From Candidatus Gastranaerophilales bacterium (GTDB lineage Bacteria; Cyanobacteriota; Vampirovibrionia; Gastranaerophilales; Gastranaerophilaceae): DNA of 53,502 nt. The stretch spans positions 1 to 53,502 of the forward strand of contig CALUTP010000028.1 of assembly GCA_944323725.1 (NCBI GenBank), given 5' to 3'. The notes under the pieces were generated by a model. It did no database searches. It was not told the origin of the DNA and worked only from the letters and a program-made list of their open reading frames with translations. A program made the position numbers and the translations under genes. This document shows positions 37,801 through 53,502 of this stretch, piece after piece; positions within the stretch are counted from its first letter, which is position 1, and each line of letters opens with the position of its first letter.

Positions 37801-40800
37801 TTACTGTTTTGAAGTTTGAACACCTTGATGATCTGCACTATACATATTCATATATAAGATTTTATTAGCAGTTGCTGCATCTAAGTTTATAAACTGCAAT
37901 CCAGCTCTGTTTCCAGAGACTCTGACAACTTTCGTCTCTGGGGAAGCATCTATGCCATGACAGCTCAAATTTAACACAAATACTTCTCCAACTTTCAACG
38001 ACCCATCATGAGTAACTAGAGCTCCGCCTCTTGATATATCATTTATTGCAATAATTCTAGGTGATTTCTTATGTTTTTTATCTGAAACCTTAATATATCC
38101 ATCACCCTCTGCTATTTCAAATCTTAAATACTGACGTTTTGTTGGCTTATAAGTTGATTTATCAATATCTTCGAAATCTGGAGTTGTTGTTGTTTTCTGG
38201 ATTTTATCATCTTTATATGTTAATCTGTAGAAACTGTTTTCTGTTCTCGGAAGATTTACAACTTCATAAGGATTGTAATGAACAACAGGAGCTTTTGTTT
38301 CCATTGCAATAACATTACCCATGCTTAATGCGTATGAACCGGTTAATTTCGTATATAACTGTGCAGTGACCGGCATATTAGGATAGTCATTTGCTAAATT
38401 TCTATAGAAATCATTATCTACAATTACAGACCATCTGTAATCATCATTTATATAGTGTCCTCCAGGTTCTCCTCCCCTGTTACCGTTTCTGAATTCTGCA
38501 TAGTTAGTAATAAATGCATCACTCATATGAATATTTAAATCTTTTGTATCAACATAAGCATAATCAGTATAGAATTTACTTAGTTCCATACCTCTATTAA
38601 ATTCTTCAGACTTTTCTTCTGATGAATTTAATGATAATGTGACATCCTTAGCTTTATACACAGTTTCCTTAAACCCTAGAGGGTTATCAAATATTTCAAT
38701 AGTTTGAACAACCTCTTGAGGTTTATAATTTCTTGCTTCAACTGATACACCTGCATCTTTTACTGCATCCGGAGATACTCCTTGAATATCAAATACCAGT
38801 TTATCTCCATCTCCGACTGTATTAAATCCGGAAGCTTTCAAATCTTTTGGTGAATTTGGATCCATAAAATCATTTGCGTATGTTCTATCCAATGTTGCAT
38901 CAAAGCCGTTATGAGCATTATTATATACCGGTGAACTTGGAGCATCGTAAGCATGAGCAATTACATTATCCGCTCTTAATATAACATCAGGAGTACCATC
39001 ATTTTTACCTTCTAGGTATGCATTATAAATATTCAAGATTGAATTTGCATCATCTGGATTTACCCTTGTTGAAGGATTTACATCAAGAACATGGATTTCA
39101 ATTGAATCAGGAATAACAGAACCCATTAAGATTTTATCATGTGGATATAAGATATCGTCATCTTCTCCTAATAGATTTGTAATTTTTCCTAAGTCATAAA
39201 TTGTCAAACTTGCCGCTTTTGAAACAATTTTCAAATGACCGCCCGCAGTTATTTCACGAATTACAGCATTACCGGAGAAATCCAATCCCATATTGCCTCT
39301 TTTAGCAATTAACTGCCAGATATTATCATTATTGCCTAAACCACTCAGGTATAGGTCATTTTCAGCTAAAGCACTTATTGAGCCGTTTGCTAGCTGATTG
39401 TATGTAAAAGAATTACCATTAGAGCCAATATTATCACTTGAAATTAAAGACATATGTCTTCCTGTAATATTTGCTTTAGATTTATCTGCAGAAGCATTAT
39501 TAATTGAATAGCCATGATAATATGGTTCATTATCAGGATTTGGATTGTACTCATCAGCCTGTTTCCAATCTGCTGCTGTCAGCATCACATTTCCATCTGT
39601 TACTATATTTCCGACATTCAAATTAGAATTTTTCGCTCTTATATTAACTAAAGCATTACCATTATTAGTTGCACTACCAGATACAGTACCCGCTATATTA
39701 ACATTTATTGATTCTGTATAATCTCTGGTTGAAGCATTTATGCCAAAGCCTGATTCTTTATCAGTTAATGCATGAGTATCATTACCCATATTACCGTTAA
39801 TTATATTAAATTCAAGATTTCCACCTGTTTTAATTAATGTTTTATATGATTTATCTGGATTTCCTAAATCGTGATTTTGATTTTTAGATGAATTATCAGG
39901 ATCCACAATACCATTTAGAACATCGCCATTAGTTTGGGTAATTTTTACACTGCCATTAGACGCTGTCAAATAGTCATCATTATTACTATCATATTCACCG
40001 ATAACAATATTAGAATTTTCATTGGTCAACTCAATATTTTGTCTTATAGCTGTGATAAGACCATCTATATCTATACCGGCAAATCTTGTACCAGAATTTG
40101 ATATTTTTATAGTTCCAGCATCATTTGTAATTCTACCTATTGTAGAAATTGTAATTCCAGAAGTAGAAGATGTATTATTATTGTTTATTTCAGTAACACC
40201 TTTTTTATTATTAATTAAACCATCAACTAAAATTCCTTGTTTTCCATCATTTGTAATATGAATTTTACCATCGGTATTAATCACTTCACCGGAATCTGCA
40301 ATTTTAATTCCACTTTCGGAATTTGTATTTTTAACTATTGTATTACCTTTATTTTTGTTGAATATCTTACCTAAAATATTCATAAGACCAGTACTGTTAT
40401 TTTCAACAGTCAAATTATCTTCAGATGTTTCCGAATTATTAGAAATTTCTGCATCTTTAGCAACAGTTAACGCCCCTTGATTATTTACTACCGATACTTT
40501 TGATGTTTTACCTGTGCCTGCAACAGTTCCTGTAATTTCAGTTCCGCCAGTGCCATTATTTGTTACATTTAGGTTATTTCCATTATTTTCTACTGTACCA
40601 GATACTGACAATTTGCCAGCATCATTTGTCACTTCTAAGATATTTCCAGTATTTTTTACGGTACCTGAGATTTCTGTACCTTCTGCTCCTTTATTGCTTA
40701 CTGTTAAGTTATTTCCATTATTTGTTACTAATCCATCTATTAATAACTTTCCGCCTTCATTACTTACAAGCGAATTCCCATCTGTATTTTCTACAGTACC

Positions 40801-43800
40801 GCTTATTTTTGTTCCACCTGTACCTATATTTGTTACTTTTGTATTACCTTTGTTTTTATTAAATATTTTCCCTATTACTGCAAGTATTCCTGAATCACTT
40901 GTATTGCTTACTGTCAAATTATCTTCAGATGTTTCTGAATCATTTGTTACTTCTGCATTACTTGCAATTGTTATATCTCCTTGTGTATTTGATACTGTTA
41001 CTTTTGATGTTTTACCTGAACCTGTAACAGTTCCTGTAATTTCAGTTCCGCCAGTACCATTATTTGTTACATTTAGGTTATTTCCATTATTTTCTACTGT
41101 ACCTGACACTAACAATTTGCCGGCATCATTTGTCACTTCTAAGATATTTCCAGTATTTTTTACGGTACCTGAGATTTCTGTACCTTCTGCTCCTTTATTG
41201 CTTACTGTTAAGTTATTTCCATTATTTTCTACGATACCTAATACTAACAATTTGCCAGCATCATTTGTCATGACGATACTATCACCATCGTTGTAAATTG
41301 TTCCATTTATATTTATACCGCCATCGCCGGAATTTGTTATTTCACTGTTTCCTGAAGTATTTTGCATAATACCATCTATAATGACAGAAGCTCCAGTATT
41401 AGTAATTTTTGAATTACCATAAGAATTTATAGTAGCAATCAATACTCCTGTATCTGATAATTTTTCTGCGACATTAACTCCATTTTCTCCGTTAATTAAT
41501 AATTCAGATACAGCATCGCCATTTTTATATCCAAATCCATTATTAATCACACCGAGAACATTAATGCTGCCATTTGATGAAATTGTTGTATTTGCCTTAT
41601 CATAACCCTGATTAGTTATATTTGTAATTGCACCCTTATTAACAAAAGTACCATCCATTCTGTTATTATCAAGATTATTTACAACTAGCTGTTTATCAGT
41701 TTGGTTATCAATTGTAATTTTTGCATAACCATCTGTATATGTAACACTGCCATTACCTGTTACTGTACCTGTTAGTTTAACATTTCCACCTTCTTGTTTT
41801 GAATTAAATAATATAAGTTTTTCATCTTTATATAAAACTTTTAAATTATTATTTTCATTTAAGTATGGAGATTTATCACTACCTCCGAGATTTACCATAT
41901 TCTTTTCACCTGTAGTAGGATCTTCAATAAGATTAGTTAACATATCCTCTGTAATAGTTAAATTTTTATCACCATACCCCGCTTTTACAGTACCATCAAT
42001 TTTTATATTCGTAGCATTTATTTCTACATTTTTACCTGCAATAATTCTATCATTTGATTTTAATTCAAAAGAGACACCAGCATTTTTGTAAGTTACATCA
42101 CCTTGAGTAGCAACGACATCAGTACTTCCTGTACTTACACTGGTGTTAAATATAACATCTCCGCTTTCATTCCAAATACTTAACTGTTCTCCAGAATTTG
42201 AAATATAACCGTTAAATATTATATCTGAAGCAACAGAATTTACTAATGTCGGATTCATATAATCATAGTAATTATTGATAACAATACCAGTTCCATTAGT
42301 CGAATCTGAAACCAAATATACATTTTTACCAGGCGTATCCGGTAAATTTACAGGGGTGCTTGTATCTGCTAAATAATTGTAATTTGTACCATTTATTATA
42401 AACCCTGACAATCCCCTGTTATCAAGACTAACATTTTTAAATATTAAATCTAGATTTGAATAATTATCAATTTTTAGATTTGGAGTAAAGGTTTTAAATA
42501 TCCCCGTACCGGTTGTAGAGGAAATTTGTTCTCTTGTTAGTCCGTTTAATTCAATTTTAGATTCCGGAACATATAAGTTATCAAATTCAACTGCACCTTT
42601 ATCAACTACCAAATCTGCCAGCGGATTTTCTTTTAAGTATGCAATTTCTGCAGTTATGGAATTCTTAGCAGTTGTCAAAGAATTCATACTATTATTATAG
42701 TTTTCTTTTAGTTTATTTAAATTATTCAAAAAAGTAGTAATATTATTTTTACTATCATTCAATAAATTTTCTACCTCTTGTTTCTGTGCAGCATCTTCAG
42801 CACAAACAATGACACCTTTATACAAAGTAACACCATTTGATTCGGTAAAGTTTGCATTAACAGTATTATACGAATTTACCAGACTGGTCTTTTGATCTCC
42901 GCTTATACCTTGTTCGTCTAACACTTCTGAAAAGCTTTTTCCGGTTTCATTAGTAGAAATTGCATTTTCCCAAACTTTATCAAATACATCTTGAGATATT
43001 TGATTTTCGCCATCTCCTACAAGTGCATTTTGTAAGTCTTGTTTAAACAAATTGGATGCTTCGTCTGCGGTAATTGAAGAATTTAAAGAATTTATTAGAT
43101 CATTTACCTCATTCAACTTACTTGTATAATCAGCAATCAAAGCATCATTTTGAGCCTTGTTATTGGCAAGCTCATCGATGCTTTTTTGAAGTTTATCAGC
43201 TTCTTTTTGCAAGGATTCAATTGTATCTAGAGTTAATTCTTCCCCTGAAACATTAGTAGCTTCAACTACGTTATATTCATTTTGCATAAATCCTTCTAAC
43301 TTAGATATATCTACTTCACCGTTTCTATTAATATACATATATCTTTTTGCTGAAGAACCCGCAGCCATAGTTCCGTCTAAAACCAATGAATTATTAGTCG
43401 ACTGCTCTAAACGAGTAAATCTTGAAACTATTTTTATTGGTATACCAAATAATAATCTTGAAATTTTTGTCTCTACCATCTTAGAACTCAATGTGTGATT
43501 ACCATTTGTATAATTAGCAATAATATCTTTACCGGATGTAATATCAGCACCTTGAGCCACATTTAGTTTATTATTAACAGTATATCTTAACTGTCCGCCA
43601 GACTCTGCTGTTGCAATTGCAGCTTCAACTTTCAGATTAACACCCTGCGTAATATTATTTATAGAATTTTTCATGAAATCAAACTGAGCAAGAGTCGCTG
43701 TATTAATATGCCCATTATTATTTACATTATTATTTACGGTTAACCAAGCATCAGCATAACCATCAATATCTCTAAATCCGAATTGAGAAACACTTATATC

Positions 43801-46800
43801 AACGTTGTTTGATAGAGTATTTGTTGAATCAAGGGCAACATTCAAAGTATCAGCGTTTAATGTTGAATTATTAAGAATATTCAAGTTATTGTTATTTGTC
43901 ACTTTCAAAATTGATTTTGAGTTGAAATCTGTAGTAAATCCTGAACCATCCATATCAACAGATTGAGAGAACTTTGAATTGGACTCAACATCTAAATCCA
44001 TATTTTTAGCTGCGGATACAGTAGAATTATCTATTGTTATATTTGAAGATTGTGTAACCTCGTTGTCAATATTAACATCAACTTTTCCTATACCAGTTTT
44101 TACATATACGGTATATTCAATATTTTTATCTTCTTTTGTACCTAAATCAGCCTTTGAGCTTATTGCGATATTATCAGCAGTTAAATTTGAACCGCCTTTT
44201 ATATTTATATCAGAATTTGAAGTAACATTATTATATAATTCTCCGACAGAAGAAACGATTGCACCATAATCTTTGGAATTACGTTTCATTGCAATTTTAT
44301 TATCACTTTCTGCATTTAACTCTAAATCACCTTTTGCATTAATATTTGCACCATCTAAATTGATATTATTTGTAGCATTAAGAGTATTACCAGAATTATT
44401 ATTTGTAACAGCAACTACTGCAGCATTATTCTCAGTAAATACAGATTCAGCAGTATTTACAGCTTTTGCATTAATTGATAAACCATTATCAAAATCACTA
44501 TTTACGGCATCTGCAGTAACATTTACATTTGATGTACCTTGAGTACTTGTTGCAACTTGCAGTCTGTTAACTTCTACAAGACCTTTGCCAGAAGAATTAA
44601 TAGAGTTAAATGTATCTCTATTAACAGTTGAAGTAACATCCATATTATCCATAGCTAATGTGCCGTCAAGATTGATTGCAGTAGTTGTATTAATAGTTGA
44701 TTCGGATTTGCTTAAATTACCACCTACCAGTTTAATTTCAGCATTTAGCATTTGAGTATTTGTATCAGCATCATCAACTAATGCAACTACAGCATCATTA
44801 ATAATAGTATTATCACCATTAATTGTAATAGTATTAGAACCGGTTACTGAAGACTTCATATTTAAAGTATTAATCGTTAAAAGTCCTAAAGATTCACTTG
44901 ATGAGCCTACATTCGCTGTTCTTTTCATTTTAGAAGCAATATTTAAACTGTCAGTTGAGAACTTACCTGTATTTAATTTTGCTTCTGTCGCAGCATTAAC
45001 TTTAGCAGTTAATTCTGTCACATCTACACTACCAAGTGTTGCACTTGATTTTTGAGATTTAACCTCTGCTTTCATTTCAGAAGCTTCATTTACATTTGAA
45101 GTCTTAACACCTGATGCAATTGTTGTTTTTCCGCCATTATTAACTGTTATATTGGAATTATCAATTCCTGCGTTGAATTGAGAATTAATTTCTGCACCTT
45201 GTATATAACCATTTCCGCTAATTCCGGCTATAGTACCCACACTCAATGTAGTTGAAGCATTTATACCATTTGAAGATGATATTATGTCCATATTATTATC
45301 TGCATCTATAGCACCAGAAGCATTAATAAGAGCTTGAGTTATCGCATTAGATTTAGTTCTATTAACTATTACATTGACTCCGATTCCTTGAACTGTTTTA
45401 TTATCAAGTTTTGATACTAATGTACTGTTATTAGAAGATTTTACACTTACATTATTTGCATCAATATCAACATTCCCTGAAATTAAAGCTTTTGAATTGT
45501 TTGCAGTATCAGCAACGGCAACAGACGCAGCACCTCCTGCAATATTTGCAATAACACTTAACACATCAACATTAATATTGTCATTTGTAATCGCACTAAT
45601 TATTAAATCATTATTTGTATCAATTTTTGTATTTTCAGCTTTAGCAATAGTCTCAGCAGAATTATTGAAGTAGCCTACACCGCCTTGAATACCAACTGCA
45701 CCTACAGCAGCATCCGTAATATCTACTTCGGCATTAACGTTTGAAGAAGCATTAACTTTTACATTACCGGCATTTGCAATAACCTCGCCACCTGATATTG
45801 AAGCATTGGTTTTATACTTCATATTAGTAACCATAACACTGCCATTTACAGCACCTAAACCAACCGCCGCTGATGTATTATTCGAACTGAATGTATTATC
45901 GCTATACCCTTTCAATGTATTTGTTGCAGATACTTTTGCCGCATCTCCATCAGAATTTTTATTATTTGTTGTAACTTTAGCATTTAAGTTAGACTTAACT
46001 CCATCTTTAGCCTGACCGCTTTGCAAATCATATGAAGCAGTTTTAGATACTCCAACTTTTTCATATTGAATATTATTGGTATTTTTATCAATTTTGGCAA
46101 TTGACTCATTTATTCCGACATTATTTAACTCACCAGCACCAGAAAAATCAACCTTACCACCGATAGAATTTATAACAACATTACCTGCAATTCCGCCAAT
46201 ACCACCTGCAGCAGTTGCAGCAGTATTATCCATACCTATAATAGAATCTGCTACGACTTCAACATTTCCTGCACTAATCTGTCCGTTTGTATTGCTCAAT
46301 AACTCAGCTAACACTGCATTATTTATGACATTTACATTAACACTTGCACCTACACCTGCACCTAAACCTGCTACTGAAGCAAGTCCAAGTTTGTTATTTA
46401 CTAATATTTGATCATTTGCATTAACTGTCACTGAACCTGACGCTTTAATAGCATTATTTCCAGCATTAATATATGCCTTAGATGTATTTTCAAGAACATT
46501 TACAACTGAATGAGCAGACACACCAGCACCTACAGCCGCAACAGATACACCCATATTGGTATTTTGAATATTTTCATCACTGTCCACAGCAACAGAAATT
46601 GTTGAAGCATTTTCTACAGACGTATTATCAATATAAGAATTCATATTATTATTGAATACGTTCACAGCAGAATTAATTGCCGCAGCTGCACCTTCTAAAG
46701 TTGCAGTACCGAAATATGCGTTATTATTAATATAAGAATTTTGGATAGCTGAAGATGCAATACTACCTCCAGAAATAGATGAATTTGCTATATATGAATT

Positions 46801-49800
46801 AATATTATTATTGACTACATTAACCAGAGAATTAATAAGAACACCTGCACCTACAGCATTTAACCCTCCTGAAGCCAAACCGTTAAGAATATCTATATCT
46901 GAATTAGCACTAACAGATGTAGAGTTAGCTTTTGTTATGTTTGCACCATCTATTATAGCCTTTAAATCATTATCAAAGACATTAGTAATTGCATATCCGC
47001 CAACAGCAGCACCTACTCCAGAAACTGATACTCCAACAACTCCAGATTTAACATTATCAGTAGATATTGCAGAAACAGTTGTTGTTGCTCCATTTATTAA
47101 GTGATTTTGACCTTGTATTTTAGCCTCTGTCATTCCTGTAAATACATTTGTAATAGGAATTATTGTTGCAGAAGCTCCTGTACCAACAGCTGAAATCGCA
47201 GCTAATATGTCATTTACATTAACTGTATTTATCGCTTTCACATTAACTGTAGAAGCATTTAAAATATTAGTATTAATAACATTAGCAATTACATTATTGG
47301 AAATTAAATTTGCATTTTCTATTCCGGTAACAGCTGTGCCGGCAACAGAACCAGCACCACTAAATACAACCGTATTCAAATTAAATGTATCCTGTGCTGT
47401 TGTACTAAGACTGCCATTTTCTATTTCAGAATTTTCAACTAATGCTTTTGTATTCCCAGAATATACATTATTTACACCGGTTATATTAACCGCAGCAAAT
47501 GACGCAAATGATGTACTTAATACAGCATCATAAGTATTCATTGAAGATAATGCATTTACATTCAAACCGTTTGTTGAAGATATAATAGAATTTTTTACAT
47601 AGGAATTAATATCAGAAGATACAACATTAGCTATGACATTAGCTCCAATAGACGCCCCACCGCTACCTGATATACTTACAATACCTACTAACAGCATTAA
47701 TGAAGCTACATCAGAAGAGGTAATTGTATCTTTTCCAAATAAATTACCTATACCTACAGCTTCTTTATCTTTATTGAAATAATTCTCAGCTTTAACATCA
47801 ATTTGTCCATTAGAAGTTTTCACAGTGGTATTTTCAATACCTGCATTTACATCAGATGCCATAGTATTAGATATAGCAACACCATCTACAGCAACAGCAC
47901 CACTACCTGAAATCAATGCAATATTAGCTTTAAAGTTTTGTGTATCATCCGCCGAAATATCAACGTTACCGCCAACATTTATTTCACCTGCTTTTTTACC
48001 GTCAGTACCATCTTTTCCGACGACAGCATTAACTTTATTTGCTAAAACATCAACATACACAGCACCACCGATACTTGCACCGCCTGCTGCAGCAACACCT
48101 AAATTCAAAGATTCAATATCCATTACATCTGTTGCATCAACAGTCAGAATACCATTTGAATTTATTGTTACTCCATTTCCAATATAAGCATTTGTAGCAT
48201 TTGCAACAATATTTGAATTTATTGAGCCATCTACAGCGGCACTACCAGCCGCTCCTATTATAAACATAATTGATTTATAAATCTGAGAAGATTCAGCATC
48301 TACATTTATATTCCCGACATTAGAACCAGTTCCGATTTTCGCACCATTTGCAATATAAGCACTTACATCACTTACATTTACATTTGAGAATACAGAACCT
48401 CCAACAGCAGCAGAACCTGCTCCTGCAACATTCCCTACAATTACATCAGCTACAGTCTTGTTAGAAGCTAAAACATCAATATTACCTGCATTTTGAATTT
48501 CCGTGTCAGCACCTATGTAAGAATTTACCTCATTTACAACTGTTTTGGAGATTAATGAACCAGCCGCTGCAACATTACTTGCTCCAGCCGCATCAAATGT
48601 CATATCCCAATTTTGGAAATCGGCATCAGTTGATGCATCATAACTGCCATTTTGAATTTTTTCAACTATAGATGATGCCGTAATTGCTCCAGGAGTTTCT
48701 TCACCAAAAATGTTTTTAGCTGTTGCCTGAACTTTAATATCTTCACCTTTTTCTATTGAAGTATTATCTATATGTGCATCAACATTTTTAACATAGACAT
48801 CAGCTAAAATAGAGCCACCGACTCCTGCTGTTCCACCTGTCGCTGCTAATGTTCCGCCACGACTTCTTGACTTTGTATTATCAGAAGCTATAACATCAAT
48901 TCCGTTTGAAGATATCGTTGATGATTTAATTACATTGCCACTATCATCTTTTACAGCATCAATTTTAGCGGTTGTTGAATTTTTAACAACATTTACTCCA
49001 ACATTCACAGCCGCAGAAGCTGTAGCACTTCCTGCTATTGCTGCAGCAACCGGAATTATATCTATATTTTCATCAGATGTTGCACTTACTGTTAATTTCC
49101 CTTTAGTTTTAACATTAGAGCCTGTTACCTGAGCTGAATTACTGCTAAGCATTGTATTTGACAACACATTTGCCCCAAACGTTGCTCTGCCTGAACCTGA
49201 AATAGCTCCTACTACAGTAATACCTTGAATTAAATTATCATAATCCGTCAATACATTAATTGCATTAACGCTATCTACTACTGAAGCTGTTATTGAAGAA
49301 TTTACTTCATTTTGGATAACATTTACAATTCCGTTTGCATTTACAGGTATTCCGGCTCCTGTCTGTACCCCCATATTTGCAGCCAAGAAAGATAATTCTT
49401 CTTTATTATTTGCATTTATATCAATAGAATTTGCTATGACATTTGATTTATTTTGAATAGAAGCATTGATATTATTGTTGATAACACTGACAATAGCTCC
49501 TACTCCTACACCTGCACCATTTGAAGCTGATGAAAAATTCAAAGATCCAGCAAGATTGGTATTTCTAAAATTATTATTTGCTACAGCATCCAAATCACCA
49601 GTTGCTGTAATAGTTGAATTATCGATTATAGCAGCAATTTCATTATTTACAACATCTGTTGCCATAGCACCTGAGAATGTATAAGCATTTGTTCCGCCAC
49701 CAATTACAGTACCGCCTACACCTACAGAAATTAAATCCTCTGTTAATTTACTACTATCTTTATTTGCACTAACTGATATGTTATTTGCATTGTTAATTTC

Positions 49801-52800
49801 AGAATTTTTAACTTCCGCTTTTGTTGTTTTGTTAATAATATTTAAATCACCGCTCATGCCAGCCCCAACAGAATTATTTCCTGTTGAAGCAATACCTACG
49901 GCAAGGCCACCTGCACCTTTATAAGCAGCAGAGTGGTTTTCTGCATCAACATTAACATCAATTTTGCCGTTATTATTATGCGAAATAACAGCACCATCAA
50001 TTGCTGAAGTTACAGAATTTTCAAGTACGTCAGCATTAAACGATCCACCTGCAGAAACTGAAGTATTTGCATCACCTGAATCAACTTTTGTAACCCCTAC
50101 ACCTATTGCGACTTGAATATTGTCATTATTTTCTTCTGATATGACATTTAACTGATTATTGGCAGATTTATCAGTGTATGTAATAGTTGCACCATTAATT
50201 AATGCATTGGTATTATTTGAATTTTGAATAAAGTTAACCGCTGCACCGGCACCTACGGTAGCAGCATTTGCAACACCTCCGCCAACATTCAACGATTTTG
50301 TAGTTTGGTTTGCTTCTACATTTACATTATTTGCAACGTTGATTGTCGCATTACCAATCTCAGCTTTTACTACAGATTCATTAATTTGAGCATTAACAGA
50401 ACCTGCAGCCGCTAATGAAATATTCTTTGACTGACCTTTATTTGCATCTAAATTATCCAATGATGAAGCTTCTTTTCCTGTAGAACCTTGAAATTTAACA
50501 TCATTACCATTTGCATCTTTTAATGAAGTTCCGCCCTTAGTTACAATATTCCCATCCTTATCAATGTTATATTTTTCGTTTTCAACAGAAATTTCAGGGT
50601 TTGCATCAGTTGAAGTATTTGCAGAAGTTGATGACAACTTACCAGATAATTTATTAAATACATCTCCAACCTTTGATAAAGCCTTATTTGATGCAGTTGA
50701 ATCAGAAGCTGCCGGCTTTTGAACACTCACTCCGCCTGCAAAAGCTCCAGCTAGAGCAATATTTAAAGATTGAGTCTGACTCTTAGCATAAACATTTAAA
50801 CTATCTGTAAGCGTAATTGTCGCACCATCTGCAATAGTCGCTGATATATCTCTATTAAACTGACTTACATTCACCGAAGCACCTACAGCTCCACCTGATG
50901 AGCTTGTAGCACCTCCACCTGAAGTTTGACTTTGCTGTGATAATGCTCCTGAAATTAAAATATTTGATATTCCATCTTTTATTGTTACAGGATTATCTTT
51001 AAAAGTTAATAAGCCTGTATCAGGATCAATTCCACCAAAATTACTTATAGTTGGAGAAGTTAAGTCTGGATCAAAACCAGGCTCAAAATTTACATCAGTC
51101 GGCAAATCATTCCAAATTTCATCACCAAAAGTAAATAAAACATCATCAGCTTTTGCTAATTCTTTTAGTTCTGCACCACCGACTTTTACATTTAAATTTT
51201 TAGCTTTAAGATTTTTGACCTTACCAACAGAAGATTTAGTAGTGCCATCTACAGTCTGAACCGTAACACTTCCTGATATGGCAGCACCGTTTGCCCCTGT
51301 TGCTTTACTGCCTGTAGATACCACAGTTAAGAATTGGTTTTCTGTACCAGAAAGTACATCTACATCCCCAGTGACTGTAATTGTAGAATTATCTCCAATT
51401 TTTGATTCTGTGTTATTAGTAACATTTTCTACAATAACATTACCGCCTAGACCATTTTCACCACTTATACCTCCTGTAGGAATAAACAATTTCTTTATCT
51501 GCCCTGCTGCATTATATTGAACAGTCTTATTCGCTGCATTAACTAAAACATTTCCGCCATTTACAGTTGCATAGTCACCAATTGTCGCAAATGTATCATT
51601 AGTAATTGAAGAGTCTATAACTGATGATGCAATTCCTGTACCCTCCATCAAAGAAGATGTTGTAGATGCCCAGTTATTGAAAAACCCTTGTAGACCTAAA
51701 GAATCGTTTACATTAGTTTTTAAGCCATATAAAACATTACTGATATCTGTAGAGACTTCTTCTGCAGGATTAATTAATCCTTGCATCAATAAACGAATAT
51801 CCCAATCATCACCATACGCTGCTTTCAGATTACCTTTTATATCATCCGGCAAGCTATTTATATCAGAACCTGTTTGCAATAGATTTAAAATAAACTCAAT
51901 TGTACCGCTGTTTCTCGGTAATTCAGTCGTAGCATTAACTGATAATGTGTCATTTGCTGTAACTTTTGCATATTGATTTTCTGAACCTGATTCAATTACG
52001 GCATTAGTTGAATTATCCTGTTTATTTACAATTACTGCAACTCCTGGATTTGGAATATATGATGAATCGCTTCCTGATTTATTTTCTACTTTTATATTTG
52101 AAAGTGCATTATTAACAGTTAAATCTATCGTATTTGCATTTACACTGACATTATCAGCATGAATAGTTGCATTTTTACCGATAGTTGCATTTGTATCAAT
52201 TTTTGATTCGTTAATCACTGTTGCTATACTAGCATTTGGCAAGCCTGAAGTATCAATAAGCGGAGTACCTTGCAAATCTAATAAACCAGCAAATTTATCC
52301 ACGACTTTTTGCAATAAATTAAATTTCAGTTTATTGATCATGCTCTGTTTTGGCGCCTCTGATGACACATCCGCTTTAGCAACTGTAGAACTCATATGAA
52401 GATTTTGTGCATTTACGGAAACATTACCCTTACCATTTGTATTAATTGTTCCGTCAATTTTTGCATTTGTATCTATATCGGAATTATTTATATTTACTGC
52501 AACTGCTACTCCCATATTTGTACCTGGAGTCATATTGGCTAAGGACTGAATATTTGATGAAATACTTGAATGATTTACGGCATCAACTTCAACATTTACA
52601 GCATTAACAATTGCTCCTGAATTAATTGCAGCAGTAGTTTCAGCATCAGTTTCACTCGCTAGGATAAGCACCTGCAAGCTTGGAAGCCCTGTAATTTTAT
52701 CTATCGTTGCACCTGCAACTGCTGTCGGGTTTTTTATTTTTATACTATGGGCATTCTGGGATTGAGCATGTAATTTGACATTATTACCTGATGTAATAAC

Positions 52801-53502
52801 TGCTCCATCATTTACATTTACAGATGATATAGTTTTAGAACCTAATGCGTAATATAACTCTTCTGATGTATCTAACATAGGAGCAAATCTGCTTGAGGAT
52901 TTATAAATAGTATTTGCAACTGCATTTGAACTCAAATTTACATCATTTCCAGCAGTAAGTTCAGCTCCGGAATTAATATTCACTTCCGCCTTTGCTCTTG
53001 CCCCTTCAAAATCAAATTTTTCACCGGTAATAGCTGCTTCAATTTTTTGTCCAAGTGCTGAAGTATAAGTATCTCCCAATATCGGCACTAAGCTTACACT
53101 ACTGCCTGAAATATAATCTACTTTACTTGTAGCATCAATAGTTATATCATTTGCAGCCTTTAAAATTGCATTATCTATATTTACTATTGCATAATTTGTA
53201 TCATTATGAGCATTAGTATTTGTAGCATCAGATGGTAATGAATTTTCTATTGTAGTTTTCAATAAATTTGTTAAATAACTGCCAGTTACACCTTTATCTC
53301 TTAGCTCTTGAGGTAATAAGTTGTCATCTAGCCAATTACCTGTTTCTTCATTAATTAAATCATTAACCAGATATTCTTTACCTTCAATTACAAGCTTTTC
53401 TACTAAACCTGGATTTACAGCTTCTTTAATTGACTGAGCTTTAATTACAATATTTCCTTTACCATCAAATGCGGTAGCATTTTTTACATCATTATTTACC
53501 AA
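37801..53502 (-). CDS. Giant LktA-like filamentous adhesin with C-terminal PilZ domain (5' end beyond the window)
   Basis: The open frame runs from the window edge to TAA at 37801, at least 5233 residues; the first codon seen is an internal TTG. Residues 1 to about 3300 are imperfect repeats of roughly 60-70 residues: an alternating IxVxA strand, a Gly/Ala-rich block (GAVGASVNV), then INSxIxNS. This is the pattern of beta-solenoid filamentous adhesins. A coiled coil follows (about 3420-3635), then Asn/Thr-rich repeats (NNGNNLTVSNKGAEGTEISG) with a near-identical duplication at about 4067-4394. The non-repetitive end carries RQYLR and NDISRGG (PilZ motifs) at about 5121-5230. Cys is very rare. 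A surface adhesin is the natural reading; the secretion route lies in the missing N-terminus. Confidence 0.82.
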   Translation of the reverse strand: MVNNDVKNATAFDGKGNIVIKAQSIKEAVNPGLVEKLVIEGKEYLVNDLINEETGNWLDDNLLPQELRDKGVTGSYLTNLLKTTIENSLPSDATNTNAHNDTNYAIVNIDNAILKAANDITIDATSKVDYISGSSVSLVPILGDTYTSALGQKIEAAITGEKFDFEGARAKAEVNINSGAELTAGNDVNLSSNAVANTIYKSSSRFAPMLDTSEELYYALGSKTISSVNVNDGAVITSGNNVKLHAQSQNAHSIKIKNPTAVAGATIDKITGLPSLQVLILASETDAETTAAINSGAIVNAVNVEVDAVNHSSISSNIQSLANMTPGTNMGVAVAVNINNSDIDTNAKIDGTINTNGKGNVSVNAQNLHMSSTVAKADVSSEAPKQSMINKLKFNLLQKVVDKFAGLLDLQGTPLIDTSGLPNASIATVINESKIDTNATIGKNATIHADNVSVNANTIDLTVNNALSNIKVENKSGSDSSYIPNPGVAVIVNKQDNSTNAVIESGSENQYAKVTANDTLSVNATTELPRNSGTIEFILNLLQTGSDINSLPDDIKGNLKAAYGDDWDIRLLMQGLINPAEEVSTDISNVLYGLKTNVNDSLGLQGFFNNWASTTSSLMEGTGIASSVIDSSITNDTFATIGDYATVNGGNVLVNAANKTVQYNAAGQIKKLFIPTGGISGENGLGGNVIVENVTNNTESKIGDNSTITVTGDVDVLSGTENQFLTVVSTGSKATGANGAAISGSVTVQTVDGTTKSSVGKVKNLKAKNLNVKVGGAELKELAKADDVLFTFGDEIWNDLPTDVNFEPGFDPDLTSPTISNFGGIDPDTGLLTFKDNPVTIKDGISNILISGALSQQSQTSGGGATSSSGGAVGASVNVSQFNRDISATIADGATITLTDSLNVYAKSQTQSLNIALAGAFAGGVSVQKPAASDSTASNKALSKVGDVFNKLSGKLSSTSANTSTDANPEISVENEKYNIDKDGNIVTKGGTSLKDANGNDVKFQGSTGKEASSLDNLDANKGQSKNISLAAAGSVNAQINESVVKAEIGNATINVANNVNVEANQTTKSLNVGGGVANAATVGAGAAVNFIQNSNNTNALINGATITYTDKSANNQLNVISEENNDNIQVAIGVGVTKVDSGDANTSVSAGGSFNADVLENSVTSAIDGAVISHNNNGKIDVNVDAENHSAAYKGAGGLAVGIASTGNNSVGAGMSGDLNIINKTTKAEVKNSEINNANNISVSANKDSSKLTEDLISVGVGGTVIGGGTNAYTFSGAMATDVVNNEIAAIIDNSTITATGDLDAVANNNFRNTNLAGSLNFSSASNGAGVGVGAIVSVINNNINASIQNKSNVIANSIDINANNKEELSFLAANMGVQTGAGIPVNANGIVNVIQNEVNSSITASVVDSVNAINVLTDYDNLIQGITVVGAISGSGRATFGANVLSNTMLSSNSAQVTGSNVKTKGKLTVSATSDENIDIIPVAAAIAGSATASAAVNVGVNVVKNSTTAKIDAVKDDSGNVIKSSTISSNGIDVIASDNTKSRSRGGTLAATGGTAGVGGSILADVYVKNVDAHIDNTSIEKGEDIKVQATAKNIFGEETPGAITASSIVEKIQNGSYDASTDADFQNWDMTFDAAGASNVAAAGSLISKTVVNEVNSYIGADTEIQNAGNIDVLASNKTVADVIVGNVAGAGSAAVGGSVFSNVNVSDVSAYIANGAKIGTGSNVGNINVDAESSQIYKSIMFIIGAAGSAAVDGSINSNIVANATNAYIGNGVTINSNGILTVDATDVMDIESLNLGVAAAGGASIGGAVYVDVLANKVNAVVGKDGTDGKKAGEINVGGNVDISADDTQNFKANIALISGSGAVAVDGVAISNTMASDVNAGIENTTVKTSNGQIDVKAENYFNKDKEAVGIGNLFGKDTITSSDVASLMLLVGIVSISGSGGASIGANVIANVVSSDINSYVKNSIISSTNGLNVNALSSMNTYDAVLSTSFASFAAVNITGVNNVYSGNTKALVENSEIENGSLSTTAQDTFNLNTVVFSGAGSVAGTAVTGIENANLISNNVIANVINTNILNASTVNVKAINTVNVNDILAAISAVGTGASATIIPITNVFTGMTEAKIQGQNHLINGATTTVSAISTDNVKSGVVGVSVSGVGAAVGGYAITNVFDNDLKAIIDGANITKANSTSVSANSDIDILNGLASGGLNAVGAGVLINSLVNVVNNNINSYIANSSISGGSIASSAIQNSYINNNAYFGTATLEGAAAAINSAVNVFNNNMNSYIDNTSVENASTISVAVDSDENIQNTNMGVSVAAVGAGVSAHSVVNVLENTSKAYINAGNNAIKASGSVTVNANDQILVNNKLGLASVAGLGAGVGASVNVNVINNAVLAELLSNTNGQISAGNVEVVADSIIGMDNTAATAAGGIGGIAGNVVINSIGGKVDFSGAGELNNVGINESIAKIDKNTNNIQYEKVGVSKTASYDLQSGQAKDGVKSNLNAKVTTNNKNSDGDAAKVSATNTLKGYSDNTFSSNNTSAAVGLGAVNGSVMVTNMKYKTNASISGGEVIANAGNVKVNASSNVNAEVDITDAAVGAVGIQGGVGYFNNSAETIAKAENTKIDTNNDLIISAITNDNINVDVLSVIANIAGGAASVAVADTANNSKALISGNVDIDANNVSVKSSNNSTLVSKLDNKTVQGIGVNVIVNRTKSNAITQALINASGAIDADNNMDIISSSNGINASTTLSVGTIAGISGNGYIQGAEINSQFNAGIDNSNITVNNGGKTTIASGVKTSNVNEASEMKAEVKSQKSSATLGSVDVTELTAKVNAATEAKLNTGKFSTDSLNIASKMKRTANVGSSSESLGLLTINTLNMKSSVTGSNTITINGDNTIINDAVVALVDDADTNTQMLNAEIKLVGGNLSKSESTINTTTAINLDGTLAMDNMDVTSTVNRDTFNSINSSGKGLVEVNRLQVATSTQGTSNVNVTADAVNSDFDNGLSINAKAVNTAESVFTENNAAVVAVTNNNSGNTLNATNNINLDGANINAKGDLELNAESDNKIAMKRNSKDYGAIVSSVGELYNNVTSNSDINIKGGSNLTADNIAISSKADLGTKEDKNIEYTVYVKTGIGKVDVNIDNEVTQSSNITIDNSTVSAAKNMDLDVESNSKFSQSVDMDGSGFTTDFNSKSILKVTNNNNLNILNNSTLNADTLNVALDSTNTLSNNVDISVSQFGFRDIDGYADAWLTVNNNVNNNGHINTATLAQFDFMKNSINNITQGVNLKVEAAIATAESGGQLRYTVNNKLNVAQGADITSGKDIIANYTNGNHTLSSKMVETKISRLLFGIPIKIVSRFTRLEQSTNNSLVLDGTMAAGSSAKRYMYINRNGEVDISKLEGFMQNEYNVVEATNVSGEELTLDTIESLQKEADKLQKSIDELANNKAQNDALIADYTSKLNEVNDLINSLNSSITADEASNLFKQDLQNALVGDGENQISQDVFDKVWENAISTNETGKSFSEVLDEQGISGDQKTSLVNSYNTVNANFTESNGVTLYKGVIVCAEDAAQKQEVENLLNDSKNNITTFLNNLNKLKENYNNSMNSLTTAKNSITAEIAYLKENPLADLVVDKGAVEFDNLYVPESKIELNGLTREQISSTTGTGIFKTFTPNLKIDNYSNLDLIFKNVSLDNRGLSGFIINGTNYNYLADTSTPVNLPDTPGKNVYLVSDSTNGTGIVINNYYDYMNPTLVNSVASDIIFNGYISNSGEQLSIWNESGDVIFNTSVSTGSTDVVATQGDVTYKNAGVSFELKSNDRIIAGKNVEINATNIKIDGTVKAGYGDKNLTITEDMLTNLIEDPTTGEKNMVNLGGSDKSPYLNENNNLKVLYKDEKLILFNSKQEGGNVKLTGTVTGNGSVTYTDGYAKITIDNQTDKQLVVNNLDNNRMDGTFVNKGAITNITNQGYDKANTTISSNGSINVLGVINNGFGYKNGDAVSELLINGENGVNVAEKLSDTGVLIATINSYGNSKITNTGASVIIDGIMQNTSGNSEITNSGDGGININGTIYNDGDSIVMTNDAGKLLVLGIVENNGNNLTVSNKGAEGTEISGTVKNTGNILEVTNDAGKLLVSGTVENNGNNLNVTNNGTGGTEITGTVTGSGKTSKVTVSNTQGDITIASNAEVTNDSETSEDNLTVSNTSDSGILAVIGKIFNKNKGNTKVTNIGTGGTKISGTVENTDGNSLVSNEGGKLLIDGLVTNNGNNLTVSNKGAEGTEISGTVKNTGNILEVTNDAGKLSVSGTVENNGNNLNVTNNGTGGTEITGTVAGTGKTSKVSVVNNQGALTVAKDAEISNNSETSEDNLTVENNSTGLMNILGKIFNKNKGNTIVKNTNSESGIKIADSGEVINTDGKIHITNDGKQGILVDGLINNKKGVTEINNNNTSSTSGITISTIGRITNDAGTIKISNSGTRFAGIDIDGLITAIRQNIELTNENSNIVIGEYDSNNDDYLTASNGSVKITQTNGDVLNGIVDPDNSSKNQNHDLGNPDKSYKTLIKTGGNLEFNIINGNMGNDTHALTDKESGFGINASTRDYTESINVNIAGTVSGSATNNGNALVNIRAKNSNLNVGNIVTDGNVMLTAADWKQADEYNPNPDNEPYYHGYSINNASADKSKANITGRHMSLISSDNIGSNGNSFTYNQLANGSISALAENDLYLSGLGNNDNIWQLIAKRGNMGLDFSGNAVIREITAGGHLKIVSKAASLTIYDLGKITNLLGEDDDILYPHDKILMGSVIPDSIEIHVLDVNPSTRVNPDDANSILNIYNAYLEGKNDGTPDVILRADNVIAHAYDAPSSPVYNNAHNGFDATLDRTYANDFMDPNSPKDLKASGFNTVGDGDKLVFDIQGVSPDAVKDAGVSVEARNYKPQEVVQTIEIFDNPLGFKETVYKAKDVTLSLNSSEEKSEEFNRGMELSKFYTDYAYVDTKDLNIHMSDAFITNYAEFRNGNRGGEPGGHYINDDYRWSVIVDNDFYRNLANDYPNMPVTAQLYTKLTGSYALSMGNVIAMETKAPVVHYNPYEVVNLPRTENSFYRLTYKDDKIQKTTTTPDFEDIDKSTYKPTKRQYLRFEIAEGDGYIKVSDKKHKKSPRIIAINDISRGGALVTHDGSLKVGEVFVLNLSCHGIDASPETKVVRVSGNRAGLQFINLDAATANKILYMNMYSADHQGVQTSKQ
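37850..38140 (-). other. PilZ-like domain coding region at the adhesin C-terminus
   Basis: Translation gives RQYLRFEIAEG (RxxxR, codons at 38122-38136), then AINDISRGGALVTHDG (DxSxxG, codons at 38023-38040), LKVGEVFVLNLS, and VVRVSGNRAGLQFINLD, matching the order and spacing of PilZ domains. Both c-di-GMP-binding motifs are intact. Confidence 0.75.
40320..41300 (-). repeat. Two tandem copies of a ~504-bp unit inside the adhesin gene
   Basis: The sequence around 40502 recurs at 41006 (504 bp later). Over the best 220 bp about eight differences are counted. At about 40341 and 40842 the period is 501 bp, so the copies also differ by one codon. Each copy encodes about 168 residues with GGTEITGTV, NILEVTNDAGKL and IFNKNKGNT. 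Confidence 0.8.
42600..43240 (-). other. Coiled-coil interruption in the adhesin
   Basis: The repeats give way to heptad-rich helix: DTIESLQKEADKLQKSIDEL near 43200 and NLLNDSKNNITTFLNNLNKL near 42750, with one of the protein's few Cys residues (VIVCAEDAA) between. It separates the N-terminal solenoid from the second repeat class. Confidence 0.65.

What the first reader, a model, noticed from the sequence alone, without database searches (positions are those of the whole stretch)
37801..53502. Giant adhesin of more than 5200 residues ending in an apparently intact PilZ domain
The C-terminus has RQYLR and DISRGG with correct order and spacing for c-di-GMP binding, attached to thousands of residues of adhesin-type repeats. 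PilZ domains are known as cytoplasmic c-di-GMP sensors, while filamentous adhesins are exported. Either the C-terminus stays inside, so the cell could hold or release the fibre according to c-di-GMP (a one-protein analogue of Lap-type control), or the domain binds something else outside, or the whole protein is not surface exposed. I know of no described system with this layout.
Basis: partly seen in the sequence, partly recalled or inferred. Interest (0 to 1): 0.85.

Follow-up and report, generated by a model that had tools for sequence, protein, structure and literature searches.

The report
Exported PilZ tail on giant adhesins
A family of gut bacteria related to cyanobacteria makes giant secreted surface fibres, and small secreted proteins beside them, that end in a PilZ domain, a sensor of the internal signal c-di-GMP, with its binding residues intact although the proteins are built for export, so either this signal is read outside the cytoplasm or a known sensor has been given a new job there.

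Summary
Window 37801-53502 (-) encodes 5,233 residues ending in a real PilZ domain (Pfam above cut-off; model matches c-di-GMP-bound YcgR and Alg44) with RQYLR and DISRGG. The frame is cut by the contig end. Its N-terminus lies on another contig of the same genome: a Sec signal peptide and LktA-type two-partner-secretion (TPS) domain, beside a divergent TpsB. A relative carries the same protein as one 5,444-residue frame. Genomes of one family (Candidatus Gastranaerophilales, non-photosynthetic relatives of cyanobacteria) carry PilZ-tailed TPS adhesins of about 850-5,500 residues. In 76 diverged copies the binding-motif residues are the most conserved of the domain; one copy is degenerate. All 102 complete copies start with a signal-peptide-like sequence. 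Small signal-peptide+PilZ genes follow the adhesins in operon-like order; in a second family such a gene stands divergent to a TpsB under strong purifying selection. LapG was not found. Most likely the PilZ is an extracytoplasmic module that anchors or gates the fibre at TpsB and binds c-di-GMP or a similar ligand there. Binding, location and ligand are inferred, not shown. I found no described system with this layout.

The parts
37801..53502 (-). Giant PilZ-tailed LktA/TPS-family adhesin, 5,233 codons up to the contig edge (5' end missing; the N-terminal 208 residues are on contig C26 of the same genome, about 41 residues unseen in between)
   Evidence: 92.8% identical over 5,236 columns to residues 252-5442 of the single 5,444-aa frame L090, while the C26 fragment is 88.8% identical to its residues 5-210
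38179..53502 (-). Passenger: LktA-type repeats, predicted fibrous
   Evidence: NF012206 LktA_tand_53, 6 stretches, 99.6 bits; three tandem arrays only at DNA level, one of 66 bp x 3.2 at 41058-41270
37804..38178 (-). C-terminal PilZ region used for alignment and structure prediction
   Evidence: PF07238 at 37858-38094, 34.6 bits; AlphaFold2 core pLDDT about 90-97; structural matches to YcgR and Alg44 with c-di-GMP
38122..38136 (-). RQYLR (RxxxR motif), residues 5123-5127
   Evidence: first R in 76 of 76 and second R in 75 of 76 representatives
38023..38040 (-). DISRGG ([D/N]xSxxG motif), residues 5155-5160
   Evidence: S and G in 76 of 76, D or N in 75 of 76

Best explanation
The window carries one member of a family of two-partner-secretion (type Vb) exoproteins whose C-terminus is an exported PilZ domain. 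Sec takes the chain into the periplasm, TpsB threads the passenger out N-terminus first, and the small folded PilZ barrel stays on the periplasmic side as the anchor or gate, in the place where other TPS adhesins (HMW1, HxuA, CdrA) carry a disulfide hook. Its RxxxR and [D/N]xSxxG pocket binds c-di-GMP or a chemically similar ligand present there, which would set whether the fibre is held or released; the small signal-peptide+PilZ proteins encoded next to the adhesins would be partners or competitors in the same process. Shown by sequence: export signals, TPS domain and TpsB, PilZ fold, motif conservation and selection, operon-like small PilZ genes. Inferred: periplasmic location of the folded domain, anchoring at TpsB, ligand binding, and the hold/release switch.
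For: PilZ in Pfam above cut-off and canonical c-di-GMP-class fold. N-terminus with signal peptide and NF012204 TPS domain, 145.7 bits, next to a divergent TpsB with POTRA_2 and ShlB domains; the same adhesin/TpsB neighbourhood in G004 and G008. Motif residues are the most conserved columns in 76 representatives under 80% identity, in loci partly found without using the motif. Signal-peptide-like start in 102 of 102 complete PilZ-tailed frames against 1 of 25 cytosolic PilZ proteins of the same genomes. Small signal-peptide+PilZ genes, six of them 39-186 nt downstream of PilZ adhesins. In family f7 a 173-aa signal-peptide+PilZ gene divergent to a TpsB, dS 0.46, dN 0.019 in the mature part. All exported copies form one clade (77 of 77, support 0.946) apart from 25 cytosolic PilZ proteins. 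No LapG in 39 genomes and no cysteine in the last 120 residues of 58 of 60 tails, so neither known retention device is evident. Every genome tested has GGDEF proteins.
Against: No periplasmic c-di-GMP is known; one TPS study states that c-di-GMP is normally only cytosolic (PMC8472254). Ligand binding was not tested. One adhesin tail (L091) has lost the motifs. LktA-type adhesins without any PilZ exist in the same genomes, so it is not needed for secretion. G010 has PilZ adhesins but no clear TpsB. Signal peptides were judged by a simple hydropathy rule. The RxxxR region of the window model has low confidence, pLDDT about 51.
Confidence: 0.5

Rival explanations
1. Inside-out plug: the chain is exported N-terminus first while the PilZ tail is still in the cytosol. 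c-di-GMP binding stabilises its fold so that it cannot pass SecYEG, leaving a fibre that spans both membranes and is held while c-di-GMP is high.
For: It needs no c-di-GMP outside the cytoplasm. Ligand-stabilised folding does stall Sec substrates in vitro: methotrexate bound to DHFR makes a true translocation intermediate (PMC4148884). GGDEF proteins are present in all genomes and the cytosolic-type binding motif is retained.
Against: Small signal-peptide+PilZ proteins with the same conserved motifs are hard to explain as plugs. A stable SecYEG jam should be costly to the cell (own knowledge). No stop-transfer segment precedes the PilZ.
Confidence: 0.17
2. Mere stopper: the PilZ barrel is only a compact fold that cannot pass TpsB and anchors the fibre, with no ligand.
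For: TPS adhesins are known to use a folded C-terminal knot (HMW1, HxuA, CdrA; PMC5422565). Domain and position fit, and these tails lack the disulfide hook.
Against: A ligand-free stopper would not be expected to keep RxxxR and [D/N]xSxxG as the most conserved columns of the domain, more conserved than most core positions, nor to exist as a separate small exported protein.
Confidence: 0.16
3. Outside receptor: the whole protein is released or surface-displayed, and the PilZ binds cyclic dinucleotides or other phosphate-rich molecules from neighbouring or lysed cells in the gut.
For: Long acidic or Thr/Pro-rich linkers precede many PilZ tails. Added extracellular c-di-GMP changes biofilm formation of Campylobacter jejuni (PMC9608569).
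Against: In TPS export the C-terminus leaves last and is commonly retained (PMC5422565). The effect in C. jejuni used 50-400 uM added nucleotide and names no receptor of this kind.
Confidence: 0.12
4. Chance or decay: a leftover fusion of no function.
For: One degenerate tail, L091.
Against: dN/dS-type ratios of about 0.03-0.06 in tail and small-gene pairs with measurable dS; conservation across a family and part of another.
Confidence: 0.02

Closest known systems
CdrA/CdrB with LapG/LapD of Pseudomonas aeruginosa (TPS adhesin with c-di-GMP-controlled release)
   Same: TPS adhesin held at the outer membrane by its C-terminal tail, with c-di-GMP as the controlling signal (PMC5422565, PMC8472254)
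   Different: There c-di-GMP acts indirectly: LapD in the inner membrane sequesters the periplasmic protease LapG. Here LapG (PF06035) was not found in 39 genomes, the tail has no cysteine pair, and the adhesin itself ends in a c-di-GMP-class receptor domain
HMW1 and HxuA C-terminal anchors; FhaB prodomain (TPS)
   Same: C-terminal element retained on the periplasmic side (PMC5422565; FhaB from own knowledge)
   Different: Those are a disulfide-closed loop or a prodomain; here it is a PilZ barrel
Leukotoxin LktA-family filamentous adhesins (NF012204, NF012206)
   Same: TPS domain and repeats match both models
   Different: The NCBIfam models do not include a PilZ tail; LktA-type proteins without PilZ occur in the same genomes
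Alg44, YcgR, BcsA (canonical PilZ receptors)
   Same: Fold and both binding motifs
   Different: Known canonical receptors act in the cytosol; these are on proteins with Sec signal peptides

Membership tests
PilZ domain (PF07238) | Profile match above curated cut-off | tested here: met
   34.6 bits for the window tail against 22.5; small proteins 35-43 bits
PilZ domain (PF07238) | Six-stranded barrel fold of c-di-GMP-binding PilZ | tested here: met
   Z 13.5 to YcgR PilZ with c-di-GMP, rmsd 2.4 over 107 residues; Foldseek E 1.2e-4 to Alg44 with c-di-GMP
PilZ domain (PF07238) | RxxxR and [D/N]xSxxG present and conserved | tested here: met
   75 of 76 representatives
PilZ c-di-GMP receptor | Binds c-di-GMP | not testable with these tools
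   Needs a binding assay
Two-partner secretion (type Vb) TpsA | Sec signal peptide | tested here: met
   MNNKLFKSKRVIAGFLSCMVMMQQAICLPVIASEI on C26; heuristic hit in 102 of 102 complete PilZ-tailed frames
Two-partner secretion (type Vb) TpsA | N-terminal TPS domain | tested here: met
   NF012204, 145.7 bits; Pfam PF05860 gave no match in the own genome
Two-partner secretion (type Vb) TpsA | Cognate TpsB nearby | tested here: met
   678-aa protein with POTRA_2 and ShlB, divergent to the N-terminal fragment
Lap/CdrA-type c-di-GMP-controlled retention | LapG protease (PF06035) | tested here: not met
   0 of 39 genomes; the control genome Caulobacter vibrioides rang
Lap/CdrA-type c-di-GMP-controlled retention | C-terminal disulfide hook (TPS form) | tested here: not met
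   No cysteine in the last 120 residues of 58 of 60 tails, one in 2
Lap/CdrA-type c-di-GMP-controlled retention | Fibre held at high and released at low c-di-GMP | not testable with these tools
   Needs an experiment

The most novel reading that the evidence does not exclude
A lineage of c-di-GMP-class receptors works outside the cytoplasm: exported PilZ domains on secreted adhesins and on small companion proteins bind a cyclic dinucleotide in the periplasm or at the surface and gate fibre retention at TpsB, which would mean that this second messenger, or a close relative, acts beyond the inner membrane.
Probability: 0.3. Interest if true: 0.93.

Novelty: new variant of a known kind. Interest (0 to 1): 0.8.

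Why it matters
PilZ domains are regarded as cytosolic c-di-GMP sensors. An ancient, lineage-wide family of exported PilZ domains with the binding residues kept under selection either puts a c-di-GMP-type signal outside the cytoplasm, or shows a new one-protein way to couple cytosolic c-di-GMP to a surface fibre, or shows that this pocket reads another ligand. Each can be tested with a purified 120-residue domain. It also gives the first concrete hypothesis for surface attachment in Gastranaerophilales, common and mostly uncultured gut relatives of cyanobacteria.

Tried and rejected
Pfam TPS (PF05860) does not see the domain in the own genome; NF012204 does. Chance origin of the motif was rejected. 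Chance fusion or assembly artefact was rejected because relatives carry the same architecture in uninterrupted frames. LapG control was sought and not found. A disulfide hook was sought and not found. TM-scale hydrophobic stretches after the signal peptide were flagged in 11 of 102 frames; those near residues 128-168 fall in the conserved TPS segment and I read them as beta-strands, but a few others in the giant frames were not examined one by one. A sequence profile search of PDB gave only sub-significant PilZ hits (best E 0.099), so the fold claim rests on Pfam and the models. Non-canonical PilZ (XC1028 type) scored far below the canonical class (Z 5.6 against 13.5). The 'CARF-associated HTH' Pfam hit in the passenger (no stretch passing on its own) was taken as a repeat artefact. 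A literature search for 'periplasmic PilZ' gave no paper; other searches gave no PilZ-tailed adhesin. The held library is open-access only, so absence there is weak evidence. One scan of 84,980 species genomes was allowed and its pattern came from this family, so the architecture in distant phyla is not excluded.

Full report
Observation. The minus-strand frame 53502..37801 is open for 5,233 codons and ends in a PilZ domain. PF07238 matches at 37858-38094 with 34.6 bits, above its cut-off of 22.5. RQYLR lies at 38122-38136 and DISRGG at 38023-38040, each once in the protein. The window is a whole contig (C28 of a 1.91 Mb genome, 99% complete), so the 5' end is cut and the TTG at 53502 is not a start.

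The missing N-terminus. A 208-residue fragment at the edge of contig C26 starts with a Sec signal peptide and matches the LktA-type TPS domain NF012204 with 145.7 bits. In the closest relative, L090 (G012), one uninterrupted frame of 5,444 residues covers both: the C26 fragment is 88.8% identical to its residues 5-210 and the window frame 92.8% identical to residues 252-5442. About 41 residues are unseen, giving about 5,480 in all. The contig join is inferred from this, not observed. Next to the fragment, divergently, lies a 678-aa TpsB with POTRA_2 and ShlB domains. TpsB stands beside the giant adhesin also in G004 and G008. The passenger matches the LktA tandem repeat.

A family, not an oddity. 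PilZ searches in 59 relatives show many hits in frames of 800-5,300 residues besides the usual frames of about 200. Typical members have a signal peptide, a TPS domain, repeats, a low-complexity linker of (DADADSD), (PTEQ), (TTPTGD) or (PPGDDDD) type, and PilZ. A profile of the tails finds 135 of 386 genomes of the phylum: 131 listed from the same family, two from family f7 of the same order, and two weak hits elsewhere. One scan of 84,980 species genomes gave 212 related loci; the best 80 are almost all labelled Candidatus Gastranaerophilales or Melainabacteria, or unnamed gut MAGs. Of complete N-terminally complete LktA-type frames in the N-anchored set, 16 have the PilZ tail and 7 do not, while 12 are cut at a contig end, many of them inside the linker. 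The own genome has both kinds: C13 with PilZ, C18 without.

The motif is under selection. In 76 tails under 80% identity, the first R, the S and the final G of the two motifs are invariant, the second R and the D/N hold in 75, and these positions rank at the top of the domain by entropy; K before the first R and R after the S are nearly invariant too. Bias check: the scan used only a C-terminal peptide pattern and the search only the N-terminus. The one exception, L091, has lost both motifs. Tail pairs with measurable dS show dN of 0.007-0.11 at dS of 0.25-2.4. AlphaFold2 gives a PilZ barrel (core pLDDT about 90-97; RxxxR region about 51) whose best structural matches are c-di-GMP complexes of YcgR (Z 13.5) and Alg44, well above the non-binding XC1028 type (Z 5.6). 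Exported tails form one clade apart from cytosolic PilZ of the same genomes (77 of 77, support 0.946), which suggests a single origin.

The domain is exported. All 102 complete PilZ-tailed frames begin with a signal-peptide-like sequence by a hydropathy rule, against 1 of 25 cytosolic PilZ controls. Independent of the adhesins there are small proteins made of signal peptide, linker and the same PilZ with motifs intact (Pfam; model pLDDT 89-98 over the barrel). In six loci they start 39-186 nt after a PilZ adhesin, which may itself follow another PilZ adhesin, so they look like the last gene of an operon. In family f7, G041 has a 173-aa signal-peptide+PilZ gene divergent to a TpsB with no adhesin in the 10 kb read; its counterpart in G046 differs mainly in the signal peptide (mature part 96.6% identical, dS 0.46, dN 0.019). 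The PilZ thus seems to have a job with TpsB that does not need the fibre.

How it probably works. Known TPS adhesins are held at TpsB by a C-terminal knot, a disulfide loop in HMW1 and HxuA, and CdrA is cut from its hook by LapG when c-di-GMP is low (PMC5422565; PMC8472254). Here LapG was not found in 39 genomes and the tails have no cysteine pair. The PilZ barrel sits where the knot would be. The simplest reading is an exported anchor whose hold on TpsB depends on a bound ligand of c-di-GMP type, with the small PilZ protein as partner or competitor. The difficulty is the ligand: c-di-GMP is held to be cytosolic (PMC8472254). The alternative, in which c-di-GMP folds the tail in the cytosol and stalls it at SecYEG, has a laboratory precedent with DHFR and methotrexate (PMC4148884) but does not explain the small exported proteins. 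A ligand-free stopper does not explain the invariant binding residues.

Known or new. All parts are known; the combination was not found in the searched literature, which covers open-access papers only. I file it as a new variant of a known kind: a TPS adhesin by tested features, with a PilZ domain by tested features. c-di-GMP binding, location and hold/release remain untested.

Noticed in passing
L059:802-2838 (contig C26 of the same genome): The TpsB beside the adhesin N-terminus has a long, very basic N-terminal extension before its POTRA domain (KNYQERKKKKNNKK...FFRNKKNKK), while many PilZ adhesins have acidic (DADADSD)n linkers; an electrostatic pairing is conceivable.
   Followed up: no
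L039:2751-7103 (contig C13 of the same genome): A second PilZ-tailed LktA adhesin of 1,450 residues with a long Asp/Ala/Ser linker that resembles the SD repeats of staphylococcal MSCRAMMs only by composition.
   Followed up: partly
L091:750-14663 (G017): A 4,637-residue adhesin of the same family whose PilZ tail has lost both motifs: a natural control for loss of ligand binding.
   Followed up: partly
G010: A 99% complete genome with PilZ adhesins but only a marginal, BamA-like ShlB match; its TpsB is missing, diverged or unassembled.
   Followed up: no
L136, L171, L176: Records titled Fusobacterium sp. CAG:439, Heliobacteriaceae and Muribaculaceae carry the PilZ-tailed adhesin; the titles may be mislabelled metagenome bins.
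   Followed up: no
L215:4276-6646 (G041) and L216 (G046): TpsB paired with a signal-peptide+PilZ gene and no adhesin in the 10 kb read: either a miniaturised adhesin or a separate TpsB regulator.
   Followed up: partly
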